Assembly (NCBI RefSeq): GCF_003386095.1 | Contig: NZ_QREG01000003.1 | Location: forward strand, 62,001 to 126,000 | Length of the DNA stretch: 64,000 nt | Reading direction: 5' to 3' | From: Marinoscillum furvescens DSM 4134 | GTDB taxonomy: Bacteria; Bacteroidota; Bacteroidia; Cytophagales; Cyclobacteriaceae | In this document: positions 1-51,942 of the stretch, in pieces | How the letters are laid out: each line of letters opens with the position of its first letter | Numbering within the stretch: position 1 is the first letter of the stretch | The notes under the pieces: model-generated | What the model was told of the DNA's origin: nothing | The model's database searches: none | Seen by the model: only the letters and a program-made list of their open reading frames with translations | Translations under genes and position numbers: made by a program

Positions 1-953
1 CCAATCCATTTGCCCGTATTGCCTCCACCTCCTTTGGCACCATAAGCCTCGCCTTGAGGTTTGCCGCTAGGGTGATCCACAGACTTGATCTGGTAGCTCT
101 CCGTGGAGTGTCCATTGTCGCTGGCAAATACCACCAGCGTATTGTCCAACAATCCTAATTGCTGCAGATGGCCCATCAGACGCCCAACCTCCTCATCCAA
201 ACTGGAGATCGTTTGCGCATAGGATTTTCTGGGCTCAGGCATCTGGCCATAGTGCTCTTCGTACTCCCGGGCCGCTTCCTCGGGGTAGTGGGGAATGTTG
301 TAGCCCAAGTAAACCAGAAAAGGCTCGTCCCGATGCGTCTCGACAAATTCCATAGCCTTGTTGGTAATGAGAGATGGGAAATAATTACCGGGTTCGAAGA
401 CCTCTTTCTGGTTATGCCACAAATCATGATATCCGGGCTCGTGTAAAAAGTAATGGTTGTAGTTATCTATAAATCCATTTCGGATGCCAAAAAACTCATC
501 AAATCCCTGAGCAAGCGGACCATGCTCCATGCTGCCTCCTACATGCCATTTACCAAATAGTCCTGTATGATAGCCCAATGGCTTCACCACCTCTGCCAGA
601 GTCACTTCGCTGAGATACATGTTTCTGTCCGTAACACCTTCCCTAGGGTTGCCCTGCGTCCAGGTGTTGATATTGGCACGCTGAGGATAGCGCCCGGTGA
701 GCAATGATGCCCTGGCCGGACAGCAAACGGCATGTGCATACGCCTGGGTGAATTTTACACCCCGTGAAGCCAGCGCATCGATATGTGGAGTATATAAATC
801 CGCTGATCCAAAGGACCTCAAATCCAAAGTACCCTGATCATCGGTAAGGATGATGAGGATATTGGGCCGTTCCTGACGTGAGCTGGTATCGGTGCAGCCA
901 GTAATCAGCAGGGTTGCTGTGCAAAGAAGTGTGAGCAGACTAGCGGTTTTCAT
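1..953 (-). CDS. S1-family sulfatase lipoprotein, partial (C-terminus beyond window)
   Basis: About 317 N-terminal codons are present; the gene runs off the left edge. The start at 953 gives a lipoprotein signal with lipobox LITGC (Cys20). The alkaline-phosphatase-like sulfatase fold follows: metal-binding LTDDQ at 36-40, then the formylglycine site VCCPARASLLTGR with Cys77 in the C-x-P-x-R consensus, and further on GKWH and ASDNG. The family hydrolyses sulfate esters on glycans after Cys is matured to formylglycine by a separate enzyme, which is not in this window. A palindrome at 1028-1039 lies about 75 bp upstream and matches the PUL operator, so the gene probably belongs to the LacI regulon. 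The sulfate position it attacks cannot be told from sequence. Confidence 0.93.
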   Translation of the reverse strand, partial: MKTASLLTLLCTATLLITGCTDTSSRQERPNILIILTDDQGTLDLRSFGSADLYTPHIDALASRGVKFTQAYAHAVCCPARASLLTGRYPQRANINTWTQGNPREGVTDRNMYLSEVTLAEVVKPLGYHTGLFGKWHVGGSMEHGPLAQGFDEFFGIRNGFIDNYNHYFLHEPGYHDLWHNQKEVFEPGNYFPSLITNKAMEFVETHRDEPFLVYLGYNIPHYPEEAAREYEEHYGQMPEPRKSYAQTISSLDEEVGRLMGHLQQLGLLDNTLVVFASDNGHSTESYQIKSVDHPSGKPQGEAYGAKGGGGNTGKWI

Positions 954-1000
954 AGGCTAAAAAAATCGGTCAGCTCACATAATTAGCACATAGTAGTGAG

Positions 1001-1017
1001 AATCAAAAACTTTGATT
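1001..1017 (-). other. Small AT-rich hairpin in the sulfatase leader
   Basis: A 7-bp perfect inverted repeat (AATCAAA / TTTGATT, 3-nt loop) lies between the operator at 1028 and the sulfatase start at 953. It resembles the operator-hairpin-start layout seen at fucI and the GH5 operon. It is AT-rich and could be chance. Confidence 0.35.
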
Positions 1018-1027
1018 AAAGTATTAG

Positions 1028-1039
1028 TTAAACGTTAAA
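1028..1039. promoter_or_regulatory. Putative LacI-type operator (11 of 12 match)
   Basis: TTAAACGTTAAA differs at one base from the perfect palindrome TTAAACGTTTAA found in front of susC. It lies between the sulfatase start (953) and the stop of the convergent-side neighbour (1059), so its target is the sulfatase. Weakest of the ten sites. Confidence 0.6.
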
Positions 1040-1058
1040 CCAATTTAGTCCCTGCTGC

Positions 1059-4805: not shown

Positions 4806-6146
4806 CTAGTTGCTCTGCTCCAAAATCATCAAATCCCATGGAGCAATCTCCAATAGTTCACCTTTTCGGTATGAGTTTCCTGAAATGAGCTCTCGCACAA
4901 GCCTGTCTTCGCACGGAAAACTGACCGCTTCATTGGAGTAGTTTAGCAGATAAACTATGTTTTTGCCCTTTCGATTGGTGCCAGCACGTACGGTAACAGG
5001 AGCTCCCGCATGGTCGGGGCTTTTCACTGAGGCCCGCTTCATCATGCGCATAAGTAGCGAAGAGAGCAGTTCGCCAGACGGCCAGGTACCCAAATAGGTG
5101 ACCTCCCCTTTTCCATACGTATTGGACACGATAGCTGCATAGTCTCCCCAGTAGTCATGCTGGTAGGTAGCCAACACTTCGCCGTTGGTAGGTGTCAGCA
5201 GCTCCATCCAATGGTTAGCGCTACCTCCTGGAAGGATTTCCCCCGAAACCACCAAAGGCATTACTTCAATACTGTTAAATTGCTGGTAATTGGCTCCCAC
5301 TACTTCCCTCAGCACACCGGGCATCAAGTCTCTTCTGACCTGCACATTTTCATCAGTGAAGCCGGATTTAAAAGAATAAAGAATGTGCCCACCTTCAGCT
5401 ACAAAGTGATTGAGTCGTTTCAGTTCCTCATCGGAAGCGGAATAAAGCGGTGGCACGATCAACGCTTTGTATTTACGAAGCTGACTTTCCGAAACGGTAT
5501 GATCTATGAAATCACAAGGGATGTTTTGCTTGTAAAGCAGCTCATAATACTGCCTCACGATATCTCCATAGTCCAAGCCACTACTAATCGGAAAAGCCTC
5601 CAAAGCCGACAGGGATTCATTACTAAAATAGATTGCTACTTCGTTGTGTTTCTTTAAGCCAATCAGGTCATCATTGAGTCGCTTGAGCTCCTGAGAAATT
5701 CTCGCTACTTCGTGATAAGTTGGATTAGGTTGCATGTCATGCGAAAGCACTCCTTTCCAGTAAGTTTCGTAGCTGTTGTGTATCGAATGCCAATGCCAGT
5801 AACCCACCATGTTTGCTCCGGAGGCCAGATGGCTATACGCCTGCAACCTCAACTGACCGGGATAATGGAGCTTTTGTTTGTCGCTTGTCAGGATACTTTG
5901 CGCCTGTGTCTCTATAACCAGGTAGTTGTTTTGCTTCATGCTACGCGCCAGATCACCCGCCAGTGCTATGGTGACCCCATCCAGCTCGTCCTGAGTATCA
6001 TGGTAAATGTCTACTCCTGCTATGTCCAAATGACGTGCAGCTTCCATGTGATCCACATTGGACTGGATGCTATAGCTACCATCTCGCCAGCTCAAATCAA
6101 AATTTTGGGTGACAAACTGCTCAGGGAGGGCATATTCACGGACCAA
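4806..6146 (-). pseudogene. GH42 beta-galactosidase, C-terminal fragment after a frameshift
   Basis: 446 aa in a different frame from its N-terminal half (6148-6888). The open frame can be read upstream of the listed Met as FLQWQYELVREYALP, which fits directly onto the upstream fragment, so the listed ATG is not a natural start. It holds the second half of the TIM barrel with the likely nucleophile Glu127 in YETYWKGVLSHD, the beta-galactosidase trimerisation domain (about 155-370, including EVAIYFSNES and ALIVPPLYSASDEEL) and a small C-terminal beta domain. Together the two parts total about 690 residues, a normal GH42 length. Alone it lacks the acid/base residue and a signal peptide, so it should be inactive unless the reading frame is restored. 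Confidence 0.85.
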
Positions 6147-6147
6147 T

Positions 6148-6888
6148 TCATACTGCCATTGTAAAAAGGGTCACCAGCGAGCGCTGAAATTGCTTGAAAG
6201 CGGACACTAAACTACCATTGATCGAACCGGTGATAGCTGGCATATCTTCCCAGGAGTTTACGGAATTGCTCCAGTAGTGTAGCCCATAGGCATTATTCAT
6301 TGCTTCAGGATTTTTGAATTTATCCTTCAAGTACTGAAGAAAAAGTGCCTGAGCATTGGCTCCCCAGTTGTCATAATGCTTCGTTTCATTGTCTATTTGA
6401 AAACCAATAACTGCAGGGTGTTTGGATACTTTCTCCATGAGCTTACGGATCATCCTACCTGCATAGTATCGGTAAACCGGATGTGTAATGTCCATATTTT
6501 GCCTTCGACCATACAGCGCTTTGCCAGACCTGGTCTCCACCAAAATTTCCGGGTGCTTTTTGGCCAGCCATGTAGGGATGGCATAGGTTGGTGTCCCAAC
6601 AATCACCCGAATACCTGCGGCATGCAGTTTGTCCAGCACTTCATCCCAGTATTCCAGATTAAACTCCCCATCGGCAGGCTCCTGATAGCCCCAGGTAGAC
6701 TCGGCCACCCTTACCAGATTGATTCCCGCTGCTTTCATGAGGGCTATGTCCTGCTCCAGCCTTGGTTCTGGCATATACTCCGGGTAATACGCTACTCCAT
6801 AGAGTATTTGCTGCATATCATCAGCGGAAGGCTGAGCTACCGCCATCATACTGAGGAGCATGGAGCTTAAAATCAAAATTCTTTTCAT
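6148..6888 (-). pseudogene. GH42 beta-galactosidase, N-terminal fragment
   Basis: 246 aa with a signal peptide (residues 1-18, cleaved near AVAQ) and the first half of a GH42 barrel: LYGVAYYPEYMP near 29-40 and the acid/base Glu168 in GFQIDNE. The homology stops near 6165, where the frame continues into LFTMAV and a stop. Reading the +1 frame from the CCCTTTTT tract restores FLQWQYELV. Either one extra base or a two-base loss at this tract explains it. The gene sits last in the unit SGNH esterase - DASS transporter - GH42, 12 bp after the transporter start side. It may be a genuine recent pseudogene or a homopolymer error in the assembly; the sequence cannot separate these. Confidence 0.85.
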
Positions 6889-6900
6889 GTTATTATCCTT

Positions 6901-8352
6901 TTAGATTAAATCAAATAGTGGGAACACCACCAGGTAAAGCAGGAGCGTAAGGAGGACCACACTGATGAGATTCATCCAAAAGCCCACTTTTACCATCTCC
7001 GAGATGGTTATTCGATCACTTGCAAAAATCACAGTGTTGGTACCTGTAGCTGAGGGCAGCATAAATGCAAAGGAGCATGCAAAAGTGGCTGGAATCATCA
7101 GCGTCATAGGATCCATATTGGCGCGCTGAGCCACAATAGCCAGTACCGGCAGAAAAATGGTCGCTGTAGCAGTATTGGAATTGATTTCAGTGAAAAAAAT
7201 CATCGCGCAGATGATCAATAGCATGAGCCAAAAGCCAGAGGGCATCTCCAGACTCGAAAGCTGATCTGCCAAAAATGAGGCCAGGCCGGATGATTTGAAA
7301 GCCATACCTAAGGCCAACCCTCCGCCCAGAAACATCGCAACTCCCCATGGAATGTCTTTGGCCTGCTGCCAATTCATGAGCCTACCGCCCTGCTGATCGG
7401 GTAGCAGAAAAAGTAAAATAGCTGCTCCCAGTGCCACTGTGCTATCATGCACGAATGCCCCCACACCTAGCCAGGTACTCCAGCCGTGTATTTCCATAGA
7501 ACCAATCGAAAGATCTCCACGAAATACCCATGCCAGCGCCGTAAGCACAAACACCATCAGCACACTCCACTGAGCCCTTGTCATCTTCCCCTGAGCAGCA
7601 TCCGCAGCTCTCAGTAGCTGTAAGTCACCGGTGAGGTAGCCGGAGACCCGATAATACCGCACGAGAAAAATCCACAAAACGGGCAAAAAAACAACGACTA
7701 CCGGCAGTCCAATTTTCAACCAATAGGTAAAGTCAACACCCCCCCTTTCTGGAAAAAGCTGCTGCATCATTCCGGCAAACACCATGTTCGGGGGAGTGCC
7801 AATCAGCGTTGCAGTACCTCCGATGCTCGCAGCATAGGCTATGCCCAGGAGTAGCGCATTGCTAAAGTTTATTGAGTCGGGCGTTGGTTCTTGTTGGTTG
7901 AGAATCCCTAAAGCCAGCGGTAAAAGCATCAACACCACTGCCATGTTGGTAATCCACATAGAGAGTAGTGCCGTCACTAAAATGAACCCCAGCAACAAGC
8001 GACGCTTATTCCCGCCTACCCGGATCAAAATCGCAAGAGAAAGCCGCTTATGCAAATCGTGGCATTCGATGGCTTTGGCCAATAGAAATGCGCCTAGCAA
8101 CATGAGCACATAGCTATGTCCGTACATGCCAGAAAGCTCCGCTGCAGAATGAATCCCCAACAAGGGGAACAGAACGGCCGGCAAAAAAGCCGTCATATAA
8201 ATTGGGATCACCTCCCCCAACCACCAAAATACCATTAGCACGGCCACCGCGGCAGTACGCTGTGCCAATGGCGGCATTTCCGCAATCGGAAATACTAATA
8301 CCGTAAGGGCTCCAAGCACCCCAAGCCATAGAAAGACCTTCCGCTTCGTCAT
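6901..8352 (-). CDS. DASS/SLC13-family sodium-coupled anion symporter
   Basis: 483 aa with about 11-12 hydrophobic segments spread over the whole length. The family's two Ser/Asn-Thr substrate-sodium motifs are visible: ITNMAV (about residue 134) and NSNTATATIFLP (about 389), plus GGGLALGMAFKSSGLA between them. DASS members co-transport Na+ with dicarboxylates, citrate or sulfate across the inner membrane. Here it overlaps the SGNH esterase by 4 nt (ATGA) and precedes GH42 in a unit with a LacI-type operator, so its cargo is probably an anionic product of glycan breakdown, such as a short carboxylic acid, a uronate-derived acid or sulfate. That is inference. Confidence 0.88.
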   Translation of the reverse strand: MTKRKVFLWLGVLGALTVLVFPIAEMPPLAQRTAAVAVLMVFWWLGEVIPIYMTAFLPAVLFPLLGIHSAAELSGMYGHSYVLMLLGAFLLAKAIECHDLHKRLSLAILIRVGGNKRRLLLGFILVTALLSMWITNMAVVLMLLPLALGILNQQEPTPDSINFSNALLLGIAYAASIGGTATLIGTPPNMVFAGMMQQLFPERGGVDFTYWLKIGLPVVVVFLPVLWIFLVRYYRVSGYLTGDLQLLRAADAAQGKMTRAQWSVLMVFVLTALAWVFRGDLSIGSMEIHGWSTWLGVGAFVHDSTVALGAAILLFLLPDQQGGRLMNWQQAKDIPWGVAMFLGGGLALGMAFKSSGLASFLADQLSSLEMPSGFWLMLLIICAMIFFTEINSNTATATIFLPVLAIVAQRANMDPMTLMIPATFACSFAFMLPSATGTNTVIFASDRITISEMVKVGFWMNLISVVLLTLLLYLVVFPLFDLI

Positions 8353-9089: not shown

Positions 9090-9101
9090 TTAATCGTTTA
9101 A
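9090..9101. promoter_or_regulatory. Putative LacI-type operator for the SGNH-DASS-GH42 unit
   Basis: TTAATCGTTTAA, a 12-bp palindrome with one mismatch, centred on CG, 39 bp upstream of the SGNH esterase start. Same sequence as the site at 9288. Confidence 0.75.
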
Positions 9102-9223: not shown

Positions 9224-9235
9224 TTAAACGATTAA
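9224..9235. promoter_or_regulatory. Putative LacI-type operator, distal site of the GH5 operon
   Basis: TTAAACGATTAA within a longer TTTAAACGATTAAA, about 80 bp upstream of the GH5 start and 64 bp (centre to centre) from the proximal site at 9288. Identical to the fucI-proximal site at 37743. Confidence 0.75.
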
Positions 9236-9287: not shown

Positions 9288-9299
9288 TTAATCGTTTAA
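9288..9299. promoter_or_regulatory. Putative LacI-type operator, proximal site of the GH5 operon
   Basis: TTAATCGTTTAA ends 16 bp before the GH5 start codon at 9316. Bound repressor here would block transcript elongation into the gene. Confidence 0.75.
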
Positions 9300-11013: not shown

Positions 11014-11023
11014 TTTTCTAATC

Positions 11024-11045
11024 TTCCTCTCCGAATGGAGAGGAA
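11024..11045 (+). other. Intercistronic hairpin between GH5 and GH11-like genes
   Basis: A perfect 9-bp stem (TTCCTCTCC / GGAGAGGAA) with a GAAT tetraloop lies just after the GH5 stop. No T-run follows, so it is more likely an mRNA-stability or processing element than a terminator. Confidence 0.6.
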
Positions 11046-41900: not shown

Positions 41901-44526
41901 CCGGCTGACCTGAAATGGTGTAACTGGATTCTGCAAATACGCCCGAGCCATCTTTAGCCAATGCACGAACGGTAACTGTCCCATTCGCTGTGGCAGTTAG
42001 TAGCCCTGACTCATTAATAGTAGCAAACGCTTCGCCATCAGTAATGCTCCAGGTCACATTTTTATTGGTAGCATCTTCTGGCAGCACACTTGCACTTAGC
42101 TGCAGCGTACCACCTTCCGTGGAAATACCTGTTTCACCACCATCTTCTATGGAAACGTCGGTCACGAGTATAGTTCCAGACTGATTGGAAATGGTGTAGG
42201 TCTTCTGTGCGGTAACACCACTGGCATCGTTGGCCGCAGCCTGTACAGTGACCTCTCCATCAAACTGAGCTGTAAGCAATCCTTCCTGAGAAATAGAAGC
42301 TATCTCACTACCCGCTACAAGACTCCAGGTTACCGAAGCATCCGTAGCGTTTTCTGGTGAAACCACGGCCGAGAGCTGAAGAGTACCTTTATCTGTATCT
42401 ATCCCTGTAGCTCCTCCATCTTCTATAGTGATTCCTGTGACCAATATCGGTTGATTGGAAATCGTAAACGTTTCTTCACCAAACACTTCACTGCCATCAT
42501 TAGCGGTAGCACGTACAGTGACCTCACCATTAGCAGTTGCAGTCAACAGTCCTGTTTCAGAGAGAGTTGCGAAGGATTCTCCAGATGTAATGGTCCAGGT
42601 GACTGATTGGTCCGTAGCATCTTCAGGGCTCACTACGGCCTGTAGCTGTAAAGTACCTCCTTCGGTATCAATTCCTGTGGCACCGTCAGCATTAATACTA
42701 ATTGCTGTGACAGGAACTACCTGATTACTGATCGTAATGATCTTTTCTCCAAAAACTCCACTTGTATCTTGTGCTGTCGCACGAACAGTGACCTCACCAT
42801 TCGCTTTCGCAGTGAGTAAACCTGCAGCTGAAATTTGTGCCAGCTCGGAACCCGCCACTATGGACCAGTCTACATCTGTAGTATCCGCATTGGATGGAGT
42901 TACCTCAGCAGTAAGCTGAAGCGTTCCTCCGTTTTCAGTGATTTCAGTTACATCATTGGGTGTATTTACCACAATAGATGTGACTTTTATTCCTTGATTA
43001 GAGGTGCTGATAGTCAACTGGCTACTGAGAGCTGTATTGTGCTGAGAGGTGACTTTCACGACAACTTCTCCGTTACTTTTCGCTACCAGTTTACCGTCGC
43101 TTAGAAGATCAGCATATTCAGTTCCTGAAACCAACTCCCAGGTCACATCCTGATACCACGTATCTGAAGGTGTAAAAACCGCTTGTAGCTGCAGCGTATC
43201 TCCCATCTGATCTATAGTGGTGACCTCATCGCTGATAGCCACAGCCTCAAGCTCTACCGGAATACCCATGAAGTGGACATTGTCTACATAGAGTTCTTGA
43301 AAATAGTTGGGAGCCACTACAAAGCTCGTATAGCCGTATGGTGTAATTCCATGCGCGATCAGGTCGACCTTTAGCGTCACCCATTCATCTTGAGTAGTCA
43401 TAGGGATGACGATATCATGTATCTCTTGAAGCGTATCACTAACCCGTTGATCGATTCGGATTTTCACTTTAGATGTGACGTTGGGTACGTACACATCCAC
43501 CCATACTTCCTCCACGCCATTCACGTAGGGAGATTCTCCAAAATAATAAGCAGCAGGCTCATAGGAACTTGGCGCGGTTACTTTAATGACTTTGGCTGAA
43601 GTATTGATCCCTGTTGCGTCTGGGTTGTTGGCGATCTCCACGGTACCATTGTCCCAGGACTGCCAACCAGACAGGTCTTCATCCTCCAGATCGAAGGTAA
43701 GGTAAGACTCCAGCTGAGCCTGACCGGTGATGGTAAACGTTGCTTCACCATAGACTCCACTGTTATCCGTAGCGCTCGCTCTCACAGTAATGCTGCCATT
43801 GTTCCGGGCAGTGAGCAGCCCGTCTTCATTGATGTAGCCAAAATCAGTTCCTGATTCTATCGTCCATTCTACGCGTGTGCTATCAGCGTTCTCTGGCGTA
43901 ATGCTTGCGGTAAGCTGCAGCGTGCCTTTATCAGTAGCTATTCCTGTGGCACCTCCCTCAGCTGATACTGAAATGGCCGTCACAGGAGTTCCAGGGTCTG
44001 TACTGGTTTTTTTGAAAGTTAGGTTATCAAAGAATACGGAATCTACACTTGGGTTGAATCCAAAGTTTTTATACTGACCGGGAGTTACATCCGTCAGATC
44101 AAATTTCAAAGTTACCCAGGTGTCTGCTGTGGCTACTGTTTGGGTCTGCTCGGTCCCTGCAGTGCTATTGGCACTGTTATCGAATCCAATTCGCAGGCTA
44201 CCGGTGCTACCTACATAATAGGCATCCACCCAAAATTCATCATAATCACTGTATGTAGTAGGGTCATCTATCCAAAGGCCACCGCCTCCCCAGTCTCCGT
44301 AATAGACCATTTTCAAGGCCTTAGAGGAAGTGTTGATACCCGAAGCATCTGGATTGTCTACATTTTCTAGTTTGGTAGGATCCACTCCACCAGGTTGCCA
44401 CCCGCCCGAATAGAAAGGAGAGATGGCTCCGCCCTCAAAATCTCCCAGAACGAAATCGCTTTGGGCAAAGGATGTCCCACACACTGCCATGCACCACAGC
44501 AGTAGAAGTATAGTTCTTTTCATCAT
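38941..44526 (-). CDS. Giant modular GH5 protein: 3 CBM-like, 11 BIg2-like repeats, GH5 barrel, T9SS tail
   Basis: 1861 aa; signal peptide 1-22. Order: CBM-like 24-178; BIg2 182-269; CBM-like 272-425; nine BIg2 427-1234; CBM-like 1236-1390; BIg2 1392-1477; GH5 1480-1775; T9SS tail 1780-1861 (VYPNPFDSYL). The three CBM-like domains share NPDA(S/T)G(I/L)NTS and VTL(K/E)(F/V/Y)DL. Each BIg2 unit has GTLQL, a VTWSI-type strand and GLLTA-x-x-NGEVTV. The barrel has acid/base Glu1619 in YYEPLNEP and nucleophile Glu1709 in VMCTEWDYPGS, and is a paralog of the GH5 at 9316. A surface-attached endo-enzyme reaching far from the cell is likely. It follows susC-susD-SGBP and is their probable partner in the outer membrane. 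Confidence 0.9.
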   Translation of the reverse strand: MMKRTILLLLWCMAVCGTSFAQSDFVLGDFEGGAISPFYSGGWQPGGVDPTKLENVDNPDASGINTSSKALKMVYYGDWGGGGLWIDDPTTYSDYDEFWVDAYYVGSTGSLRIGFDNSANSTAGTEQTQTVATADTWVTLKFDLTDVTPGQYKNFGFNPSVDSVFFDNLTFKKTSTDPGTPVTAISVSAEGGATGIATDKGTLQLTASITPENADSTRVEWTIESGTDFGYINEDGLLTARNNGSITVRASATDNSGVYGEATFTITGQAQLESYLTFDLEDEDLSGWQSWDNGTVEIANNPDATGINTSAKVIKVTAPSSYEPAAYYFGESPYVNGVEEVWVDVYVPNVTSKVKIRIDQRVSDTLQEIHDIVIPMTTQDEWVTLKVDLIAHGITPYGYTSFVVAPNYFQELYVDNVHFMGIPVELEAVAISDEVTTIDQMGDTLQLQAVFTPSDTWYQDVTWELVSGTEYADLLSDGKLVAKSNGEVVVKVTSQHNTALSSQLTISTSNQGIKVTSIVVNTPNDVTEITENGGTLQLTAEVTPSNADTTDVDWSIVAGSELAQISAAGLLTAKANGEVTVRATAQDTSGVFGEKIITISNQVVPVTAISINADGATGIDTEGGTLQLQAVVSPEDATDQSVTWTITSGESFATLSETGLLTATANGEVTVRATANDGSEVFGEETFTISNQPILVTGITIEDGGATGIDTDKGTLQLSAVVSPENATDASVTWSLVAGSEIASISQEGLLTAQFDGEVTVQAAANDASGVTAQKTYTISNQSGTILVTDVSIEDGGETGISTEGGTLQLSASVLPEDATNKNVTWSITDGEAFATINESGLLTATANGTVTVRALAKDGSGVFAESSYTISGQPVKVTSITIEDGGATGISEDQGTLQLSASVKPDTATDQSVIWSITEGEAFATISETGLLTATANGTVKVKATAGDGYGAFDEKEYVISGQVVLVTAITIDDNGATGIDEPGGTLALSVTVSPEDATDQSVAWSISAGETFASISDEGVLTAQADGEVTVKAMAKDGSGVFAEKQYTISGQPVLVTAIEIEDQGKEGISEDGGTLQLSTKVSPDDATDQTVSWSISEGEAFATIDDTGLLTAVANGQIKVKAMANDGSGVFAEKKYVISGQVVLVTSVEIKDNGTTTISEPEGTLQLTAEVLPEDATDKTVEWSVTAGFEVAAVSETGLLTAMSNGEVTVRAKAVDGSDVFAEKTYTISGQTDEIIKDVTFYDFENGLSSWGVWNGGTLMQVANPDASGLNTSDNVLHLTFTGDWEAVNKWYDASPFTEEITAVWVDVYVPGSGASVKMNINEPIDSSLPANIETTLEVPVGNTWVTLEYDLTGLEPEEYRQIAFFPQGTKEIYLDNIRYKGTPNENPITALEISAAADGISEDNGMMQLSATITPSDAQDTSISWSIAAGAKHALVTRDGLLVAISDGTVTVQANATDGSGVVAEKQFTISNQQMIDAASAGVGTLVDSKGERMRGTPVTIGKKLESATAYATEQSTYEDIKERSLNTVRLGWVDPWYELENYDYWTLEEALPYIDYSVARATAAGMNIIINYHTVGQFTDNYASADMSQINAFWEIVADRYQHNEYVYYEPLNEPAFGDGAKYIATNFKAELLKVYKTIRTKAPKREMLIFSFNNCDETNEQVITSYANDLDWNYTTIAYHLYSTPTTATVQKWMKDYRVMCTEWDYPGSYDYVIDVDGFALGARTLEAIGSSWTDWRENGWGDTSLDQMDDILIPDAKANGYWWGDGNTTLGVAEHKVHVYPNPFDSYLTIAAESSAISSVKVVSLTGQVVLTKAGVALTEMEVAVGQLAGGVYVLAIDFVDGSSKSIKIVKHDK
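40825..43248 (-). repeat. Nine tandem BIg2-like repeats (about 90 codons each)
   Basis: Encodes residues 427-1234 of the giant GH5. Units end in ITISNQ or YTISGQ and restart with xVTxIxIxDxGATGI. Units 4-10 are more alike than units 2-3, which suggests recent duplication within the array. Confidence 0.85.
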
Positions 44527-44551
44527 TTTTTAGTTGTTTGGTTTGGTGATA

Positions 44552-44581
44552 AAGCATCCCTGGTGCTTCACCGGGATGCTT
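44552..44581 (-). other. Intercistronic hairpin between SGBP and giant GH5
   Basis: AAGCATCCC pairs with GGGATGCTT, extended by GGT/ACC past one bulged T, loop GCTTC. No T-run follows. Probably sets the relative stability of susCD-SGBP versus enzyme mRNA. Confidence 0.65.
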
Positions 44582-44590
44582 ATTTGATGG

Positions 44591-45754
44591 TTAGTCTTTT
44601 TCTAGAAAACGTACATTATCTAGTCTAAAGATCATTGGGTTTTCAGGAGAATACCCGGTATTCACCGAAGTGTTGAATTCAAAACCTACACGACCTACGG
44701 TAGATGGATCCAACGGTTCATCTGTAGCGTCTCTGGCGGTAAAATCGGACAATGGAATAGATACCAACTCCCAACTATCGGTACCCTCTATTTCATATAC
44801 CCAGTGGATGCCGCCATCTGTACGCAATACCACATCTGGCTTAGCACCAGTGCCTGCACCGGTCACATAAGCCTGGAAAAACACCTTAGAAGGATCCGTT
44901 TGCTGAATACCAAAATCTTCGCTTTGGTTGGTAGAGCCACCGAGGTAGTAATTTTCCAACGTGCCATCCCAGGTATACTGGTAATAGCTACCATCTACAG
45001 GGTTTTCATCGTTTTCCCCACCGCTTGTCAGGTCACCCCAGGTCCACCATTGTCCTCCGTCATCTCCATTGGGATGGGTGCCATTGTCATCAAAATCTGA
45101 CACCAGGTAAAATGTACCCAAATCCAGCTCCAACCGACCTGACGAAAGGGTATCGCCAGCGGTAGTAACTACCCGGACATTAGCACCCTCTACAGCATCT
45201 TCTGGTACTTTGGCCTGAATGGTAGTAGAGGTGCTAGCTACCACTTCCATGGGCAAATCCCCAAAGAAAACCGCTTGAAGGTTTTGGAACCACTGACCAA
45301 TAATCCCAACCACATCACCAGGTTCTGCTACTTGCACACTAAACTCTTCGATGAATGGGTCTGGCTGCAAAATGGTAAAATCAATAGTAGTGAATTCCCC
45401 TTCACTATTGTAAATCTTCACCGTTTGTGGTCCCAGCTCGCTACCGGCCTCTTCATCAAAAGGCACATTGACCATCAGTGTGATATCCGACTGTACAGCG
45501 GGGTTATACACCGCATTCACCTCGGTTTCAGTAGCTACGGAAGTAAAGGTGATTCTAGAAACATCAGAGAACCCAGCTCCATCGATAAAAATCAAGTCAC
45601 CGGGAAACCCTTCTTCTCCAGATAAAGAGTCTCGGGTGTTGATCACTTCCTGAATTTCAGGCATGGCCATCTCTTCATTACAGGCCATCAGCAAAGGCAG
45701 CGCAATTGCTAGCAGCAAGCCTTTCCATCTATTGTTATGTTTTTGCATTTTCAT
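44591..45754 (-). CDS. Surface glycan-binding lipoprotein (SusE/SGBP-like, IPT/TIG domains)
   Basis: 387 aa; lipobox LLMAC (Cys25). Two IPT/TIG-type Ig domains lie at about 45-120 and 125-205 (GDLIFIDGAGFSDVSRITF; GDVVGIIGQWFQNLQAVFFG). A C-terminal beta-sandwich at about 210-387 with many Trp (GGQWWTWGDL, WVYEIEGTDSWE) is the likely glycan-binding platform. Genes of this build placed third after susC and susD bind the polysaccharide at the cell surface and feed the SusCD importer. 12 bp downstream of susD. Confidence 0.9.
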   Translation of the reverse strand: MKMQKHNNRWKGLLLAIALPLLMACNEEMAMPEIQEVINTRDSLSGEEGFPGDLIFIDGAGFSDVSRITFTSVATETEVNAVYNPAVQSDITLMVNVPFDEEAGSELGPQTVKIYNSEGEFTTIDFTILQPDPFIEEFSVQVAEPGDVVGIIGQWFQNLQAVFFGDLPMEVVASTSTTIQAKVPEDAVEGANVRVVTTAGDTLSSGRLELDLGTFYLVSDFDDNGTHPNGDDGGQWWTWGDLTSGGENDENPVDGSYYQYTWDGTLENYYLGGSTNQSEDFGIQQTDPSKVFFQAYVTGAGTGAKPDVVLRTDGGIHWVYEIEGTDSWELVSIPLSDFTARDATDEPLDPSTVGRVGFEFNTSVNTGYSPENPMIFRLDNVRFLEKD

Positions 45755-45766
45755 GAGCTTGAGGGT

Positions 45767-47284
45767 CTATTGGTTACCAAAATCATAAGGAACAGGTGCT
45801 TCATCAGGCGCTAGCATAGGGTTTTTGTCCACGTCGGCCTGAGGAATTGGCAGAATAAACTGACTATCATTGATGGAGGCCAGCTGATAAGGATTTTCTA
45901 TCGTGCCACGTTGCTGCGCCAACAAAATTGACTTGGCACGATCCTTATCCATGAGCCTTTTCAGGTCGAAAAAGTACTGACCTTCGTAAGCAAACTCTAC
46001 TCGTCGCTCGTGCAGGAGATCCGCTTTGGTAATAGAAGTTTTGGCTTCTAAACCTGCCCGCTCACGAACCTGATTAAACGAAGCAAGAGCAGCTGCATCA
46101 GTAGTTACCCCATTGGTACCCAGGATAGCCTCAGCATGCATCAGCAATACGTCTGCATATCGCATTAAGTATGTGTTATTTCCTGTACTCATGAAGCATA
46201 CATTGCCTTCAGCTGGACTTCCCGACACGTACTTTCTAAAGTGCGGCACGGTGCCATTGTAAGTATACCCACCTTCTTCAGACTTCAGATCAGGATAGTA
46301 GTTTCCGTTTTCCATGATGGTGTGATACTTGCGACCATCACCCTCTTCATAAGCATCGATCAGGTCTTGAGAAGGCTTATAGCTCCCCCAGCCATCTCCT
46401 ACTGTGGTGATATTTTCACCGAATGGTGCGGTCCATGCCTGGGTAGTGTTTCCTTGTCCCCAGCCCTGACATGCTACCCATTGCAGTGCAAAGACGGACT
46501 CAGAGTTGTTATCGAACTCTTCTTTGTACAAGTTGCCGTACTCCGGCAGCAGCGCAAACTGGCCACTAGAGATTACCTCGTCCAAAAGAGTCAGCGCTTC
46601 ATTGTGATTGCCAAGTGTTAGATGAACTTTAGCCAGAAAAGCATTGGCTACCTGCTCTGACAGTCTACCGTTTTCCTGTCTGCTAGAAGGCAGCATCTCA
46701 GAAGCGGCTGACAGATCTTGGATGATGAACTGATAAACATCCGCTACCGGGTTTTTAGGCAGTAGTGTGTTGGCCGCATAGTCCTCCATATTGGCATCCA
46801 GGATAGGTATATCCCCAAAAAGCTGTACCAGTTGGAAATATGCAATCGCACGCATGGCCATTGCTTCTCCTTTCACACGCTGTACGCCTTCTTCCGTGAC
46901 ATCTGGCCCAAGCCGATTTTCAAGGTTGTCTAGTACGGTATTGGCCGTAGCCACCACCCACCACAGGGAAAAGTAACCTTCGTGCACGAAATCATTGGTG
47001 GCATTGAGGTTCCAGTTTCGAAACTGAGCAAATGAACCACCTGTAGATGATGCATTGCCAGCGTAGATGTCTCCAGCACACGCCAGCAAGTGATAGTTGT
47101 AGTAAAACCATGGCGTATGGTACATAGCAGCACCTGCCGCTAAAAGCTGATCGTCATTATTGAAAAAGTTGTCAATAGTAAGGTTGCTTCTGGGGGGCTG
47201 ATCAAGGAATGATTCCTCCGCACACCCCATCAACAACACTACTAGCGTGATCAGTCGAATCTTTGATTTGAATATTTTTAGCAT
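45767..47284 (-). CDS. susD: SusD/RagB-family outer-membrane glycan-binding lipoprotein
   Basis: 505 aa; lipobox LLMGC (Cys21), then the family's SFLDQPPRSNLTIDNFF start. Tetratricopeptide-like helices follow (AMRAIAYFQLVQLFGDIPIL near 143-162) and the C-terminal block LLHERRVEFAYEGQYFFDLKR. Forms the lid of the SusC channel and captures oligosaccharide on the cell surface. 11 bp from susC and 12 bp from the SGBP gene. The label susD names the family, not starch specificity. Confidence 0.95.
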   Translation of the reverse strand: MLKIFKSKIRLITLVVLLMGCAEESFLDQPPRSNLTIDNFFNNDDQLLAAGAAMYHTPWFYYNYHLLACAGDIYAGNASSTGGSFAQFRNWNLNATNDFVHEGYFSLWWVVATANTVLDNLENRLGPDVTEEGVQRVKGEAMAMRAIAYFQLVQLFGDIPILDANMEDYAANTLLPKNPVADVYQFIIQDLSAASEMLPSSRQENGRLSEQVANAFLAKVHLTLGNHNEALTLLDEVISSGQFALLPEYGNLYKEEFDNNSESVFALQWVACQGWGQGNTTQAWTAPFGENITTVGDGWGSYKPSQDLIDAYEEGDGRKYHTIMENGNYYPDLKSEEGGYTYNGTVPHFRKYVSGSPAEGNVCFMSTGNNTYLMRYADVLLMHAEAILGTNGVTTDAAALASFNQVRERAGLEAKTSITKADLLHERRVEFAYEGQYFFDLKRLMDKDRAKSILLAQQRGTIENPYQLASINDSQFILPIPQADVDKNPMLAPDEAPVPYDFGNQ

Positions 47285-47295
47285 GACAATTCAGA

Positions 47296-50200
47296 TTAAA
47301 AGTTCAAGTTGAGACCTAATTGCATGATGCGAGGCACAGGATAGCGCCCGGGATCTAGCCCAGTGAGTCGGGCATTCTGATTGTAAGATCCAATGGCAGG
47401 ATCAAACCCTGAGTACCTGGTAAAGGTGTAAAGGTTTTGGAACGTCGCATAGACTCTCAGTCGGGTGATGTTTAGCCTGTTGATCACAGGAGCTGGGAGC
47501 GTGTACCCAATGGTGACATTTTGAATGCGTAGGTATGAGCCATCCTCTACAAAGCGATCGGATATTTCTGTAGCGTTGCCATTAGGGTCACCTTGCACAT
47601 ATCTGGGGACGTTCGTATCAGTATTCTCTGCAGTATAGCGATCTTTTACCACGGTAGACACATTGGAAATCACCTGAGCCATCCCTTCTGTGTAGTGCCT
47701 GTTCCAGTTGTAGATGTCGTTGCCATACGAGCCGTTTACAAATATTGACAAATCAAAATTTCTGAATTTCACGTCATTGCCAAAACCAAAAGTAAAGAGC
47801 GGATGCGGATTACCGATATAGGTCTTGTCTTCGCCATTGATAACCGAATCACCATTGATGTTTTGCCATTTGATATCTCCCATCCAGGTACCTTCTGGCC
47901 CTACTTCGCCCTGATAGGGTGCATTGCGTACCTCTTCTTCACTGGTAAAGAGTTTGTCTACCTTATAACCCCAGAACTGTCCCAAAGGCTGGCCCACATC
48001 GGTTTGGGTGAGCACGTTGCTCCACTCAAATGTTTCTTTGATGGAGGCCACACCATTTGGCATACTGGTGAGCTCGTTGCGGTAGTGTGAAAAAACCACA
48101 TTAGTATTCCAGCGTAGCCCATTTTTATCGATGTTTACGGTCTTCAGCGAGAGGTCTACTCCCTGGTTTTGCATTTCGCCAGCGTTGATGGTGGCAGGGT
48201 TTAGCCCCAGCCAGTCGAATGGGCTAATAGCTCCATAATAGTCCATAGAAGGCACCACAAGCAAAAAGTCACTTGATACTTTCTTAAAAAGATCCACGTC
48301 GAGTTTTAGTCGGTCATTCAAAAAACCCAGCTCTACACCCAGGTTGTAAGACACCATGGTCTCCCAGCTTAAGTTGGGATTTGGAATGTTGTCTTGCAAC
48401 AATGCTGGCCCATACGAAGACGGAATGTTTCGCAGGAGTGCACCGTAAGCATATCCCCCTACGTTTTGGTTACCTGTCTCACCATATCCAGCACGAATTT
48501 TCATCCAGTTAAAGGCTCCATTGCTCGGGAAGAAGTTTTCTTCACTAAGCACCCAACCTGCTGAAAACGAAGGAAAAACACCCCATTTATTGCCAATATC
48601 GAAGTTGGAAGAGCCATCTGCACGGACAGTTCCTGTAAACAGATAGCGATTTTTGAAGGTATAATTTACTCTGCCAAAATAAGACATCATGCCCCAGTAG
48701 GCTACTCCCCCACCATTGGTAGCGGTGGTCTGGTCTCCAGCTGATAATTCCTGAATGTCATTGGTGAGGTGTCCACGAACAGTACCATCGATCCAGCGGT
48801 ATTCGTTTTGCTGCATTTCGTGACCACCCATCACGGTGAGTTTGTGCTGACCAAACTGCTGATCGTAAGTCAGGTAGTTTTTCAGCTGCCAGTATGTATT
48901 ATTAACAGACTTTCTAATGGAAGTAGCTATTTCATTTCCGTTGCCTATCTCGTGCATTGGGTTAAAAACCCCGGAATTGTTCACATTGAAATCATAGCCC
49001 AACTCTGATCTCCATTTGAGGCCTTTTAGAATATTAATTTCCGCATAGGTATTCCCCAGGATTTTTTTACGATCAAAGGTGGTATTTCGAATTTCAGACC
49101 AGGCTACGGGGTTATTGATGCCTCCGGTACCTTCTACGATGGTGGGTCCACCCCAGCCACCATCTGAGTAGGCTACAGGAATGTCTGGTGCGGCACGGAG
49201 CGCCCCGGCAATAATTCCATCCGAAGCGTCTGTGAGCGTTACGTGCTCCTTAGACTTACTGATGTTTACGGAGTTCCCGATTTTGAACCAGTCGTTTACT
49301 TTATGGCTTACATTGATCCGGAATGAAAACCGCTGAAAATCTGTGTTCAATACGATTCCATCCTGATCGAAAAAGTTCATGGAAGAATAATAAGTAGTAG
49401 ATTCATTTCCCCCCGAAACGCTAATCTGGTGGCTTTGCACAGGAGCCACACGGAAGATTTCCTCTTGCCAGTTGGTACCCTCACCTAATCGCTCAGGTCT
49501 GGAATGTTCTAGCGATGGATCCCAACCCACCTGCGGACGAATGTCGTTTTGATACTCTGCATATTCACGCAGGTTCATCATATCCAGCATTTTGGAAGTC
49601 TGCTGAACGCCATAGTAGCCTTCATAGCTGATCTTTGACTGCCCCTGCTTTCCTTTTTTGGTGGTGATCAGCACTACGCCATTTGCTGCACGCGAACCAT
49701 AAATGGCTGCTGCAGATGCGTCCTTGAGTACTTCGATCGATTCGATATCTGACGGGTTGAGTGTGGATAGTGCAGATACACGCGTCTGTCCACTTCCTCC
49801 GCCCAGGTTACTAAAGTTGGCTGTCTCGTTGTTTTGGTTAGCCTCTAGTGGCACACCATCCACTACGTAGAGTGGTTCATTATTACCATTCAGCGATGTA
49901 ATACCTCGAATACGTACAGAGATACCACCACCTGGTTGTCCGGAGTTTTGGCGCACCACCACTCCTGACAAGCGGCCCTCAAGTGCCTGCTCCAGTGATG
50001 CTAGTGGTTTATCCTCTATCGCTTTGGCGTCTATAGAGGATATGGCCCCAGTGAGGTCTCTTCGGGTTTGCGTACCATACCCTACCACCACCACTTCACC
50101 AAGTGTCTGAAGATCCTGACTCAACTCCACGTTGATAACTGATTTACTTCCTACTGGAATCTCTTTGTTTTGAAATCCCACGAAAGAAATTACCAATACC

Positions 50201-50415
50201 TGATCACCTGATGAAACGTTTAACTTGTAGTTCCCATCAATGTCAGTAACGGTTCCGGTCCCAGTTCCTTTGATCTGGACCGCTGCCCCAGGGAGTTCAT
50301 TGCCCTGGTCATCTGTGACTGTACCTGTTAGCATTCGCTCCTGCGCAATGACACACATGCTGTACATCATTCCCACGAGCAGTACGCCAAACCTTAAGGT
50401 TGCTTTCATAATCAT
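47296..50415 (-). CDS. susC: SusC/RagA-family TonB-dependent oligosaccharide importer
   Basis: 1039 aa; signal peptide to about 26 (CVIAQ). CarboxypepD-regulatory-like domain (LTGTVTDDQGNELPGAAV), TonB-box/plug start GEVVVVGYGTQTRRDLTGAI, plug domain with PLYVVDGVPL, and a beta barrel ending in MQLGLNLNF. Imports oligosaccharides across the outer membrane with energy from TonB-ExbBD. There is no N-terminal sigma-interaction (STN) domain, consistent with control by LacI rather than an ECF sigma/anti-sigma pair. First gene of its operon; two perfect operators lie 120-155 bp upstream. Confidence 0.95.
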   Translation of the reverse strand: MIMKATLRFGVLLVGMMYSMCVIAQERMLTGTVTDDQGNELPGAAVQIKGTGTGTVTDIDGNYKLNVSSGDQVLVISFVGFQNKEIPVGSKSVINVELSQDLQTLGEVVVVGYGTQTRRDLTGAISSIDAKAIEDKPLASLEQALEGRLSGVVVRQNSGQPGGGISVRIRGITSLNGNNEPLYVVDGVPLEANQNNETANFSNLGGGSGQTRVSALSTLNPSDIESIEVLKDASAAAIYGSRAANGVVLITTKKGKQGQSKISYEGYYGVQQTSKMLDMMNLREYAEYQNDIRPQVGWDPSLEHSRPERLGEGTNWQEEIFRVAPVQSHQISVSGGNESTTYYSSMNFFDQDGIVLNTDFQRFSFRINVSHKVNDWFKIGNSVNISKSKEHVTLTDASDGIIAGALRAAPDIPVAYSDGGWGGPTIVEGTGGINNPVAWSEIRNTTFDRKKILGNTYAEINILKGLKWRSELGYDFNVNNSGVFNPMHEIGNGNEIATSIRKSVNNTYWQLKNYLTYDQQFGQHKLTVMGGHEMQQNEYRWIDGTVRGHLTNDIQELSAGDQTTATNGGGVAYWGMMSYFGRVNYTFKNRYLFTGTVRADGSSNFDIGNKWGVFPSFSAGWVLSEENFFPSNGAFNWMKIRAGYGETGNQNVGGYAYGALLRNIPSSYGPALLQDNIPNPNLSWETMVSYNLGVELGFLNDRLKLDVDLFKKVSSDFLLVVPSMDYYGAISPFDWLGLNPATINAGEMQNQGVDLSLKTVNIDKNGLRWNTNVVFSHYRNELTSMPNGVASIKETFEWSNVLTQTDVGQPLGQFWGYKVDKLFTSEEEVRNAPYQGEVGPEGTWMGDIKWQNINGDSVINGEDKTYIGNPHPLFTFGFGNDVKFRNFDLSIFVNGSYGNDIYNWNRHYTEGMAQVISNVSTVVKDRYTAENTDTNVPRYVQGDPNGNATEISDRFVEDGSYLRIQNVTIGYTLPAPVINRLNITRLRVYATFQNLYTFTRYSGFDPAIGSYNQNARLTGLDPGRYPVPRIMQLGLNLNF

Positions 50416-50535: not shown

Positions 50536-50547
50536 TTAAACGTTTAA
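50536..50547. promoter_or_regulatory. Putative LacI-type operator, susC proximal site
   Basis: Perfect palindrome TTAAACGTTTAA, 120 bp upstream of the susC start, centre 22 bp (about two helical turns) from the next site, so two dimers could sit on the same face. Confidence 0.85.
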
Positions 50548-50557
50548 TTGATTATGG

Positions 50558-50569
50558 TTAAACGTTTAA
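50558..50569. promoter_or_regulatory. Putative LacI-type operator, susC distal site
   Basis: Second perfect TTAAACGTTTAA in the 258-bp gap between susC and lacI. The rest of that gap is AT-rich and holds no ORF. Confidence 0.85.
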
Positions 50570-50673: not shown

Positions 50674-51714
50674 TTAGTTTTTATCGGCCATCAGGCGCCC
50701 ACTGCACGATTTACCAATTACAAGTTCTGCTTGTAAGCTCTTTTGCACTTTTGGCAAAGAAGGGTCGTCTATTTGGCTAATGAGAATGCGCACAGCTTCC
50801 TCACTCATGGTCACCAATGGCTGCTTCACATATGTGAGTGGACAATAGTAAAAATCAAAAGCATCACCCTGGTCAAAACACACAATCGAGATGTCATCTG
50901 GCACACGGACATTAAGCTTATCAAGGTATTTGAGCCCTTCCACAGCCAGTGTGTTGGTTGCAAAAAATATGGCATCAATGGGCTTGGGGCCATTGAGCAA
51001 ATCATCAATCCCAGCCCTAACACCTTCTTTTACCTGATCAAAGTTCACTGCCTTCAACCAGCTGTTATCAAAAGAAATGCCATGGTTTTGTAAGGCCATG
51101 CGATATCCGCTAACACGATCTCTCATATGCTGTAGGCCATTGGAATAGGCGATCATCCCTATACGCTCATTACCCGTATCGATCAGTCGCTTCACTGCCT
51201 GATAGGCTACTTCATGGTTGTCGATGACCACATAATTGGACTCGCGCTCGGGCAATCTACGGTCAATCAGCACATAGGGCTTGTTGTGATCTTCGAGGTA
51301 CTGAATCTGATCATTGGAACCTTCGCTTGGCACTATGATAAACCCATCCACTTGCCGATTCATCAAAAACTTAATCAACCCCCATGACTTATCGGCTTTC
51401 TCGTCTGAACTACCAAAAATCACCGTATAGTCCAATTTGGCTGCTTCATCTTCCACAATACGGGCGATGTGTGCGAAAAATGGGTTGGAAATATCCGCCA
51501 CGATCAATCCGATGGTATGTGTCTTACCACTTTTAAGGCTTTTGGCTATTTGGTTAGGCTGATAATTGAGCTCTTTGGCTACTTTTTTGATCTTCTCAGA
51601 CATTTCCACACTTACCCGGCTATTCGCTCCTTTGGAGAGTACATAAGATACCGTAGCTATGGAAACACCTACTTCTTTAGCAATGTCTTTGAGGGATGTT
51701 TTTTTCTTTTTCAT
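50674..51714 (-). CDS. LacI-family transcriptional regulator of the PUL
   Basis: 346 aa from ATG 51714 (MKKKKTSLKDIAKEVG); the ATG at 51765 would add 17 residues with no role. Helix-turn-helix with recognition part VSIATVSYVLS, hinge helix NQIAKSLKSG, and periplasmic-binding-protein-like effector domain (IGLIVADISNPFF, DGFIIVPSEG, PDDISIVCFDQGD). In the family the hinge Leu pries open a central CG step, and the palindromes here are all centred on CG. It sits beside susC, has its own site at 51866, and is the only transcription regulator in the window besides the antitoxin. Probably a repressor released by an imported sugar or derivative; the ligand is unknown. Confidence 0.93.
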   Translation of the reverse strand: MKKKKTSLKDIAKEVGVSIATVSYVLSKGANSRVSVEMSEKIKKVAKELNYQPNQIAKSLKSGKTHTIGLIVADISNPFFAHIARIVEDEAAKLDYTVIFGSSDEKADKSWGLIKFLMNRQVDGFIIVPSEGSNDQIQYLEDHNKPYVLIDRRLPERESNYVVIDNHEVAYQAVKRLIDTGNERIGMIAYSNGLQHMRDRVSGYRMALQNHGISFDNSWLKAVNFDQVKEGVRAGIDDLLNGPKPIDAIFFATNTLAVEGLKYLDKLNVRVPDDISIVCFDQGDAFDFYYCPLTYVKQPLVTMSEEAVRILISQIDDPSLPKVQKSLQAELVIGKSCSGRLMADKN

Positions 51715-51826
51715 GAATGAATATTTACCAATAGGGTTAGCAGTACTATTCGCAGCCACCTGCATTCAAACCTTTTTGGTATTGCAAGCGCTCTGGATAA
51801 AAAGGAGCACGAAAGGATTTTGTTTC

Positions 51827-51849
51827 AAGAGAAACCGTCGGTATCTCTT
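51827..51849 (-). other. Hairpin in the lacI leader
   Basis: AAGAGA pairs with TCTCTT and, past one mismatch, ACC pairs with GGT. It lies between the operator at 51866 and the lacI start. Confidence 0.4.
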
Positions 51850-51865
51850 CCAAACAAAGATATGC

Positions 51866-51877
51866 TTAATCGATTAA
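51866..51877. promoter_or_regulatory. Putative autoregulatory LacI-type operator
   Basis: Perfect palindrome TTAATCGATTAA, 151 bp upstream of the lacI start. It differs from the susC form by symmetric A to T changes next to the central CG. Confidence 0.78.
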
Positions 51878-51942
51878 TAATAAAAACAACTCTGCACCTC
51901 CGAATCCCGCCAACCTTAAATTAATGCGCTATTTCTAGCTAT

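What the first reader, a model, noticed from the sequence alone, without database searches (positions are those of the whole stretch)
1..51900. Ten CG-centred palindromes tie seven transcription units into one LacI-type PUL regulon
Sites at 1028, 9090, 9224, 9288, 32857, 37743, 37895, 50536, 50558 and 51866 all fit TTAAWCGWTTAA (one has a mismatch). I found them only in leader regions of the sulfatase, SGNH-DASS-GH42, GH5-GH11, sulfatase-GH151, fucI, susC and lacI units, and none in the gaps of 1059-4781 or 52001-64000. The only LacI protein sits among them. Large marine PULs are more often under HTCS or ECF control, so this defines both the regulator's motif and the extent of the locus.
Basis: partly seen in the sequence, partly recalled or inferred. 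Interest (0 to 1): 0.85.

Follow-up and report, generated by a model that had tools for sequence, protein, structure and literature searches.

The report
Fucose-linked LacI repressor's PUL regulon
A bacterium seems to switch a roughly 60-kb gene cluster for breaking down a fucose-rich, sulfated sugar polymer with one repressor protein that recognises a short DNA word in front of seven gene units; related regulators in other bacteria carry the same word beside them.

Summary
TTAAWCGWTTAA occurs 9 times exactly in the window, plus 1028 and an unmentioned susC-internal 50212 with one mismatch each; shuffles average 0.65. All nine are intergenic, and the 6-Mb genome holds only 12 exact copies. The link to this LacI is supported: among 80 lacI relatives, the motif lies within 350 bp of lacI in 32 of 39 that share the window protein's recognition-helix tyrosine, against 2 of 41 without it. 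Of 12 LacI-type proteins in the genome only this one has the tyrosine. In 20 of 83 relatives' sites, and in the window's fucI and lacI leaders, a -7 box (TAnnTTTG) starts exactly 15 bp from the site start, so the operator fills the promoter spacer: this argues for repression. The nearest orthologues mostly sit beside fucI, permease and kinase genes, so the effector is probably L-fucose or an early product. Corrections: GH11 is not supported; the left unit continues outside the window into a fucosidase-like gene; two loci elsewhere are candidate extra targets. New member of a known kind; the residue-operator correlation is the most novel part.

The parts
50674..51714 (-). LacI-family regulator (HTH plus periplasmic-binding-protein-like sensor). 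Start taken at the Met before KKKKTSLKDIA, as in orthologues; the longest ORF starts at 51765. Recognition helix SIATVSYVL: Tyr where the paralogues have Arg or Lys
   Evidence: Pfam PF00356/PF13377; alignment; paralogues
51866..51877 (.). operator TTAATCGATTAA in the lacI leader; TATCTTTG (-7 box) starts 15 bp from the site start
50558..50569 (.). operator TTAAACGTTTAA, susC leader (distal of a pair 22 bp apart)
50536..50547 (.). operator TTAAACGTTTAA, susC leader (proximal)
50212..50223 (.). one-mismatch match TGAAACGTTTAA inside susC coding sequence; probably background
37944..50415 (-). susC-susD-TIG protein-GH5/Big2 1861-aa protein-SGNH esterase unit
   Evidence: co-transcription inferred from order
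37895..37906 (.). operator TTAAACGTTTAA, fucI leader; TATATTTG starts 15 bp from the site start
37743..37754 (.). second operator in the fucI leader, 152 bp downstream of the first
32963..37732 (-). fucI (L-fucose isomerase)-fucP-like MFS permease-FGGY kinase
   Evidence: the same genes beside lacI in relatives
32857..32868 (.). operator TTAAACGTTTAA; far end 49 bp upstream of the sulfatase start
14299..32819 (-). eleven genes: sulfatase-GH141 domain-GH130-MFS-beta helix-GH151-like-CBM9-beta helix-two IU nucleoside hydrolase-like-GH151-like
   Evidence: the GH151 name is recalled, Pfam gives GHL6/Alpha_L_fucos; co-transcription inferred
9288..9299 (.). operator TTAATCGTTTAA; far end 28 bp upstream of the GH5 start
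9224..9235 (.). operator TTAAACGATTAA in the divergent SGNH/GH5 gap
9090..9101 (.). operator TTAATCGTTTAA; far end 51 bp upstream of the SGNH start
9316..13333 (+). GH5-ricin-B-lectin protein-related 245-aa protein (no GH11 match)
4806..9050 (-). SGNH-DASS transporter-GH42; GH42 is split between two frames (6148-6888 and 4806-6146)
1028..1039 (.). one-mismatch operator TTAAACGTTAAA; far end 86 bp upstream of the sulfatase start at 953
3..953 (-). sulfatase (N-terminal part), continuing left of the window, followed there by a GH151-like gene (contig C3:59448-61529)

Best explanation
The sites are operators of the LacI-family protein encoded at 50674-51714. Shown by comparison: the motif travels with this regulator's Tyr-type relatives across Bacteroidota. 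Inferred: the dimer places a tyrosine-bearing recognition helix on each TTAA half-site and sits in the spacer between the -33 region and the -7 box of the lacI, fucI and related promoters, keeping polymerase off when no sugar is present; second operators in several leaders add to the block. L-fucose or an early product, released once a fucose-rich sulfated glycan is degraded, is bound by the sensor domain and frees the promoters, so that sulfatases, fucosidase-like enzymes, SusCD uptake and the fucI-fucP-kinase pathway switch on together; lacI itself is autoregulated. Two loci elsewhere (a SusCD-FG-GAP operon and a permease-PfkB-sulfatase operon) are candidate trans targets.
For: Density: 9 exact sites, all intergenic, 9 of the genome's 12. 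Footprint: 32 of 39 Tyr-type lacI relatives have the exact motif within 350 bp of lacI against 2 of 41 others (Fisher p 4e-13, not corrected for relatedness); seven control patterns give 0 of 39 in the Tyr set. Window-family loci: 5 of 6 Tyr-type loci have exact sites in the 12-20 kb fetched, the one Leu-type has none (the sites of one of the five had been seen before). Paralogues: of 12 LacI HTHs in the genome only this one has Tyr; 10 have Arg, 1 Lys; 2 of 7 paralogues whose upstream DNA was scanned have CAAACGTTTG palindromes. Geometry: TAnnTTTG at +15 in 20 of 83 sites of Tyr-type loci, at most 2 at any other offset or on the other strand; also +15 at window fucI and lacI. The -7 box at -12 to -5 is stated in PMC9723704 (passages read), which places the operator at about -27 to -16. 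Effector: fucI adjoins lacI in most of the nearest relatives; the window protein falls in an 8-row set (SH-aLRT 98) of which 7 rows, the window included, are fucI-linked.
Against: No binding, expression or growth data. A perfect -7 box at +15 is seen at only 2 of the window's 10 sites. One-mismatch sites such as 1028 are not above background genome-wide. The genome of the Leu-type family relative (G079) still has 17 exact sites elsewhere, and a genome with no close orthologue has 29, so the word also occurs for other reasons. L031, in the window protein's 8-row set, shows no fucI on its 4.1-kb contig. A sister group keeps the motif beside galactonate-type genes, so the motif alone does not fix the effector. 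Seven Tyr-type loci lack a site within 350 bp: six have two exact sites elsewhere in the fetched DNA, L103 has none. L151 (Tyr-type) has none in 11.9 kb.
Confidence: 0.8

Rival explanations
1. The sites bind a different LacI paralogue, or several, and the adjacent LacI is incidental.
For: The genome has 12 LacI-type proteins, one of them 7 kb beyond the right edge of the window.
Against: None of the other 11 has the Tyr helix; 2 of the 7 whose upstream DNA was scanned have CAAACGTTTG palindromes there and none of the 7 has the TTAA word; the motif tracks Tyr-type relatives of this LacI across genomes.
Confidence: 0.05
2. The LacI protein is an activator that binds next to promoters, as claimed for some catabolite regulators (recalled).
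For: At susC no -7-like sequence of the forms scanned stands at +15 from either site, so the polymerase position there is unknown.
Against: The +15 spacing puts the operator between -33 and -7, where activators rarely sit (the rarity is recalled); in L029, L030 and L033 the lacI site ends one or two bases before the start codon.
Confidence: 0.1
3. The effector is not fucose but another monomer of the glycan or an oligosaccharide; fucI linkage is a by-product of co-localisation.
For: The same motif and a related LacI sit beside MR_MLE dehydratase, DGOK and KDPG-type aldolase genes in Adhaeribacter (L038, Pfam) and beside an MR_MLE dehydratase in Larkinella (L039, Pfam); in B. luti beside a PfkB kinase and a FucP-like permease.
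Against: fucI adjoins lacI in several families and in one member of the window's own family (L149).
Confidence: 0.25
4. The palindromes are chance AT-rich words or a mobile repeat.
For: The word occurs 0-29 times per genome in 118 family genomes, and one genome without a close orthologue has 11 copies clustered where no LacI was recognised.
Against: Shuffles give 0.65 against 11; all exact window sites are intergenic; their flanks differ; control patterns are absent near Tyr-type lacI.
Confidence: 0.02

Closest known systems
Local LacI-family sugar regulons (Ravcheev et al. 2014, PMC4052901; passages read)
   Same: Even palindrome with central CG; most sites 30-140 bp upstream of starts; autoregulation in 72% of studied TFs; sugar catabolic targets
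   Different: The word fucose does not occur in its main text (its supplements were not seen); the conserved core here is 12 bp with AT-only half-sites rather than 16-22 bp; targets are a whole PUL with SusCD and sulfatases
Bacteroides FucR (BT1272), fucose regulon (PMC3878776, passages read)
   Same: Controls L-fucose catabolism in a member of Bacteroidota
   Different: FucR is listed as GntR family with a single target operon; here a LacI protein with seven units
Bacteroides KdgR, UxaR, UxuR, UxmR LacI regulators (PMC3878776)
   Same: LacI family in Bacteroidota controlling sugar-acid catabolism
   Different: Other sugars; listed there under monosaccharide pathways rather than as PUL regulators
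lacI in the Gramella flava JLT2011 xylan PUL (PMC5306329, passages read)
   Same: LacI gene named in a marine Bacteroidota PUL with isomerase, kinase and transporter genes
   Different: Xylose genes; no operator or regulon in the passages read

Membership tests
LacI-family transcription regulator | N-terminal LacI HTH followed by a periplasmic-binding-protein-like sensor | tested here: met
   PF00356 57 bits, PF13377 90 bits; best solved relatives CcpA, ribose repressor, PurR
LacI-family transcription regulator | Even palindromic operator with central CG | tested here: met
   9 exact sites; found beside Tyr-type relatives
LacI-family transcription regulator | Sugar-responsive DNA binding | not testable with these tools
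   needs purified protein
Autoregulated local LacI regulon | Operator in front of lacI itself | tested here: met
   51866, 15 bp before a TATCTTTG box; also just upstream of lacI in many relatives
Repressor-type LacI regulon | Operators overlap core promoters | tested here: inconclusive
   TAnnTTTG at +15 in 20 of 83 relatives' sites but at only 2 of 10 window sites; promoters are predicted, not mapped
L-fucose regulon | Co-regulated fucI, permease and kinase, conserved with the regulator | tested here: met
   window sites 37743/37895; neighbours in relatives
L-fucose regulon | Response to L-fucose or a pathway intermediate | not testable with these tools
   needs binding or expression assay
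GntR-type FucR (Bacteroides) | GntR HTH | tested here: not met
   LacI HTH instead
HTCS- or ECF-controlled PUL | HTCS or ECF sigma/anti-sigma gene in the PUL | tested here: not met
   no such Pfam match in the 38 (of 48 listed) window ORFs of at least 150 aa that were scanned; the other 10 overlap these on the opposite strand or frame

The most novel reading that the evidence does not exclude
One residue of the LacI recognition helix sets one operator base pair in this branch of the family. Tyr, His or Trp goes with T at half-site position 5 (TTAA-WCG); Phe, Leu, Met or Gln goes with A (TAAA-WCG); Arg goes with neither word. Even Tyr to Phe, the loss of one hydroxyl, would swap the operator. 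The branch moved between fucose and galactonate-type regulons while keeping its operator and its -27/-16 promoter geometry. Against: in E. coli LacI, residues 17 and 18 are reported as the main specificity residues for base pairs 4 and 5 (PMC1464816, passage read), and those residues vary here too; L076 (Tyr with V-T at 17-18, TTAA) and L079/L081 (Met with S-A, TAAA) argue for the later residue, but independent contrasts are only 3 to 0.
Probability: 0.4. Interest if true: 0.6.

Novelty: new member of a known kind. Interest (0 to 1): 0.47.

Why it matters
It gives an operator, a regulator, a probable inducer and a boundary for a large PUL from sequence alone. The motif can be used to find PUL genes outside the cluster (two candidate loci here). 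It also offers a one-residue test of LacI operator specificity, and suggests that fucose control in some Bacteroidota is by a LacI protein rather than the GntR-type FucR of Bacteroides.

Tried and rejected
Rejected: GH11 for 11075-12511 and 12596-13333 (no Pfam GH11 match for either; no PDB sequence match for the first at E 0.001; the second was not searched in the PDB). Rejected: one-mismatch sites as evidence genome-wide (41 matches at up to 1 mismatch against 70 for the backward control). Considered: site count per genome as a test of the LacI link. The nine orthologue-bearing genomes of the 118 sampled have 2, 2, 2, 2, 5, 7, 7, 12 and 17 exact sites, but many genomes without a close orthologue also have several and one has 29; I relied on position near lacI instead. 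The independent-pairs test of residue class against motif is 3 to 0 on starred branches, 4 pairs on all branches: too few for significance; with Tyr against all the rest it is 1 pair. A first script to read the paralogue HTHs returned nothing because of a bad regular expression; the next read 8 of 12 and the rest were read. Upstream palindromes were scanned for those 8 only. Literature: the listings showed no paper on this regulon as far as titles, abstract starts and the passages I opened tell; TTAAACGTTTAA as a string gave one unrelated paper; only the held open-access library was searched, and no supplement was opened. Papers opened in passages only: PMC3878776, PMC4052901, PMC12125979, PMC10766802, PMC1464816, PMC9723704, PMC5306329. 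Not used: structure prediction, fold search, RNA models, Rfam, phage/plasmid/E. coli collections, PADLOC, NCBIfam, PHROGs.
Full report
The observation. Dinucleotide shuffles give a mean of 0.65 and a largest of 2 at up to one mismatch. The nine exact sites and 1028 are intergenic, although the ORFs I used cover 94.7% of the window. In the whole genome (5,963,384 bases, 62 contigs; the window is contig C3:62001-126000) there are 12 exact sites, 9 of them in the window; the same pattern read backwards occurs once. At one mismatch there are 29 more. Of these 27 lie outside the window, 11 between ORFs and 16 in ORFs by a mechanical call, and that level is not above the backward control (41 against 70 at up to one mismatch). 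So the exact motif is specific, and one-mismatch sites need other support. The 20 kb on either side of the window hold none.

Units. Sites precede seven units: (1) the sulfatase starting at 953, continuing left of the window to a GH151-like gene; (2) SGNH-DASS-GH42; (3) GH5-lectin-related protein; (4) sulfatase to GH151-like, eleven genes; (5) fucI-fucP-kinase; (6) susC-susD-TIG-GH5/Big2-SGNH; (7) lacI. Annotation is from Pfam; that genes of a unit are transcribed together is inferred from order and spacing. GH151 is a recalled name for the GHL6/alpha-L-fucosidase-like architecture. GH11 was not found by Pfam or, for the first of the two proteins, by sequence search of the PDB. GH42 is split between two frames.

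Which regulator. The genome encodes 12 LacI-type HTHs, so proximity alone is not enough. Their recognition helices show Tyr in the window's protein at the position I number 22 after E. coli LacI (numbering recalled); the other eleven have Arg (10) or Lys (1). Of the seven paralogues whose upstream 400 bp were scanned, two have CAAACGTTTG-type palindromes, one of them the regulator just right of the window. Within 350 bp of the lacI gene, TTAAWCGWTTAA occurs in 32 of 39 Tyr-type relatives, 1 of 3 His-type, 1 of 2 Trp-type and 0 of 36 others. Seven control patterns give 0 of 39 in the Tyr set. Six of the seven Tyr-type loci without a nearby site have two exact sites elsewhere in the fetched DNA; L103 has none. 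Outside the lacI flanks, the 39 Tyr-type loci (699,967 bases) hold 32 further exact sites against 0 to 2 for the control patterns. Among loci of the window's own family fetched afterwards, 5 of 6 Tyr-type lacI loci have exact sites in the 12-20 kb read (in L148 and L150 some kilobases from lacI, before susC), L151 has none, and the one Leu-type, L145, has none; the sites of L149 had been seen earlier in its 3-kb form, and L139 was read only as 3 kb, without a site. The genome of L145 (G079) nevertheless holds 17 exact sites elsewhere, and another without a close orthologue holds 29, so the word has other sources too. Relatedness inflates all these counts.

How it works. In 20 of 83 exact sites in 38 Tyr-type loci (sites within 70 bp of a locus end left out) the Bacteroidota -7 box TAnnTTTG starts exactly 15 bp from the site start on the lacI strand; no other offset on either strand has more than 2. 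Collapsing identical flanks leaves 19. The window's fucI (37895) and lacI (51866) leaders have it at the same offset; the C8 and C7 sites have weaker forms at 15 and 16. PMC9723704 places this box at -12 to -5 (passages read), so the operator covers about -27 to -16, between the two promoter elements. That is the place of a repressor. Pairs of sites 22 to 229 bp apart (250 bp was the cut-off) recur in the window, at C8 and in relatives, which suggests a second, helping operator. For eight of the ten window sites no perfect -7 box stands at 15 bp, so for them this is inference.

Effector. By tblastn with the window's proteins, fucI, a FucP-like permease and the FGGY kinase lie within 10 kb of lacI in L028, L029, L030, L032, L033, L034, L035, L036, L058 and L061 (the permease only 32-41% identical in L034, L035, L058 and L061); L037 has fucI and a permease; L063 has short fucI and kinase matches and a permease; L076 and L149 have fucI. 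A quick tree made from the part after the HTH (for L148 and L150 the hinge was not found and 60 residues were cut instead) puts the window protein in an 8-row set with SH-aLRT 98; seven rows, the window included, are fucI-linked, and the eighth, L031, is on a 4.1-kb contig. A sister group of 21 rows keeps the motif but stands beside a mandelate-racemase-type dehydratase. Pfam was run on L038 (dehydratase, 2-keto-3-deoxy-galactonokinase, KDPG-type aldolase) and L039 (dehydratase); L044, L146, L147, L148 and L150 were judged by the N-terminus of a neighbouring ORF; the other 14 were labelled by genus and not inspected. So L-fucose or an early product is the best guess for this regulator, and the operator seems older than the effector.

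Trans targets. C8:128890 and 129096 flank the start of a susC-susD-FG-GAP operon, the second lying 22 bp into the predicted susC; C7:11540 starts 49 bp before a permease-PfkB-sulfatase operon (the mechanical call put C7:11540 in an 82-aa ORF that I do not take for a gene). One to a few exact sites per genome are usual in the family, so the single C7 site could be chance; the C8 pair is less likely to be.

Specificity. Where a row has either word near lacI, Tyr/His/Trp always goes with TTAA and Phe/Leu/Met/Gln always with TAAA: 49 of 49 rows, the window included; 32 of the 81 rows had neither word and were not counted. Independent contrasts on the tree are only 3 to 0, so the correlation is suggestive. 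In E. coli LacI, residues 17 and 18 are reported as the main ones for base pairs 4 and 5 (PMC1464816, passage read), and they vary here too. L076 (Tyr with V-T, TTAA) and L079/L081 (Met with S-A, TAAA) separate the two to some degree. The Met-type rows group among Tyr-type rows on an unstarred branch.

Verdict. The finding is right in its main claims. It is a LacI regulon of known kind with an unusual AT-only half-site, applied to a whole fucose-related PUL. No experiment stands behind it.

Noticed in passing
window 4806-6888: GH42 is broken into two adjacent ORFs in different frames (N part 6148-6888, C part 4806-6146): a frameshift in the gene or an assembly error.
   Followed up: no
window 13390-13902: 170-aa ORF without a Pfam match at E 0.001, GNAT-like by eye (recalled), sitting between PUL units without an operator.
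   Followed up: no
window 11075-13333: Two proteins with similar N-termini (NGWCG.SKKE.CGDWVVQMNLF) without a catalytic-family match, one with a ricin-B-type lectin domain and T9SS tail; possibly an undescribed enzyme or binding family.
   Followed up: partly
window 16433-18425: Two nucleoside-hydrolase-like proteins inside a polysaccharide operon; their role there is unclear.
   Followed up: no
window 52001-64000 and L109 1-8102: The neighbouring cluster (FG-GAP/ASPIC proteins, then SusD- and SusC-like ORFs by their N-termini) ends at another LacI gene (Arg-type) with a TTACAAACGTTTGCAA palindrome upstream: probably a separate LacI-controlled locus.
   Followed up: partly
L144 6184-17034 (G040:C17): Eleven exact TTAAWCGWTTAA copies clustered in about 11 kb, partly beside ORFs that look like surface-polysaccharide genes by their N-termini, with no LacI recognised there; origin unknown.
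   Followed up: partly
L038, L039, L044, L146, L147, L148, L150: Related LacI group beside an MR_MLE-type dehydratase (and in L038 a DGOK kinase and KDPG-type aldolase by Pfam), keeping the same operator with different metabolism.
   Followed up: partly
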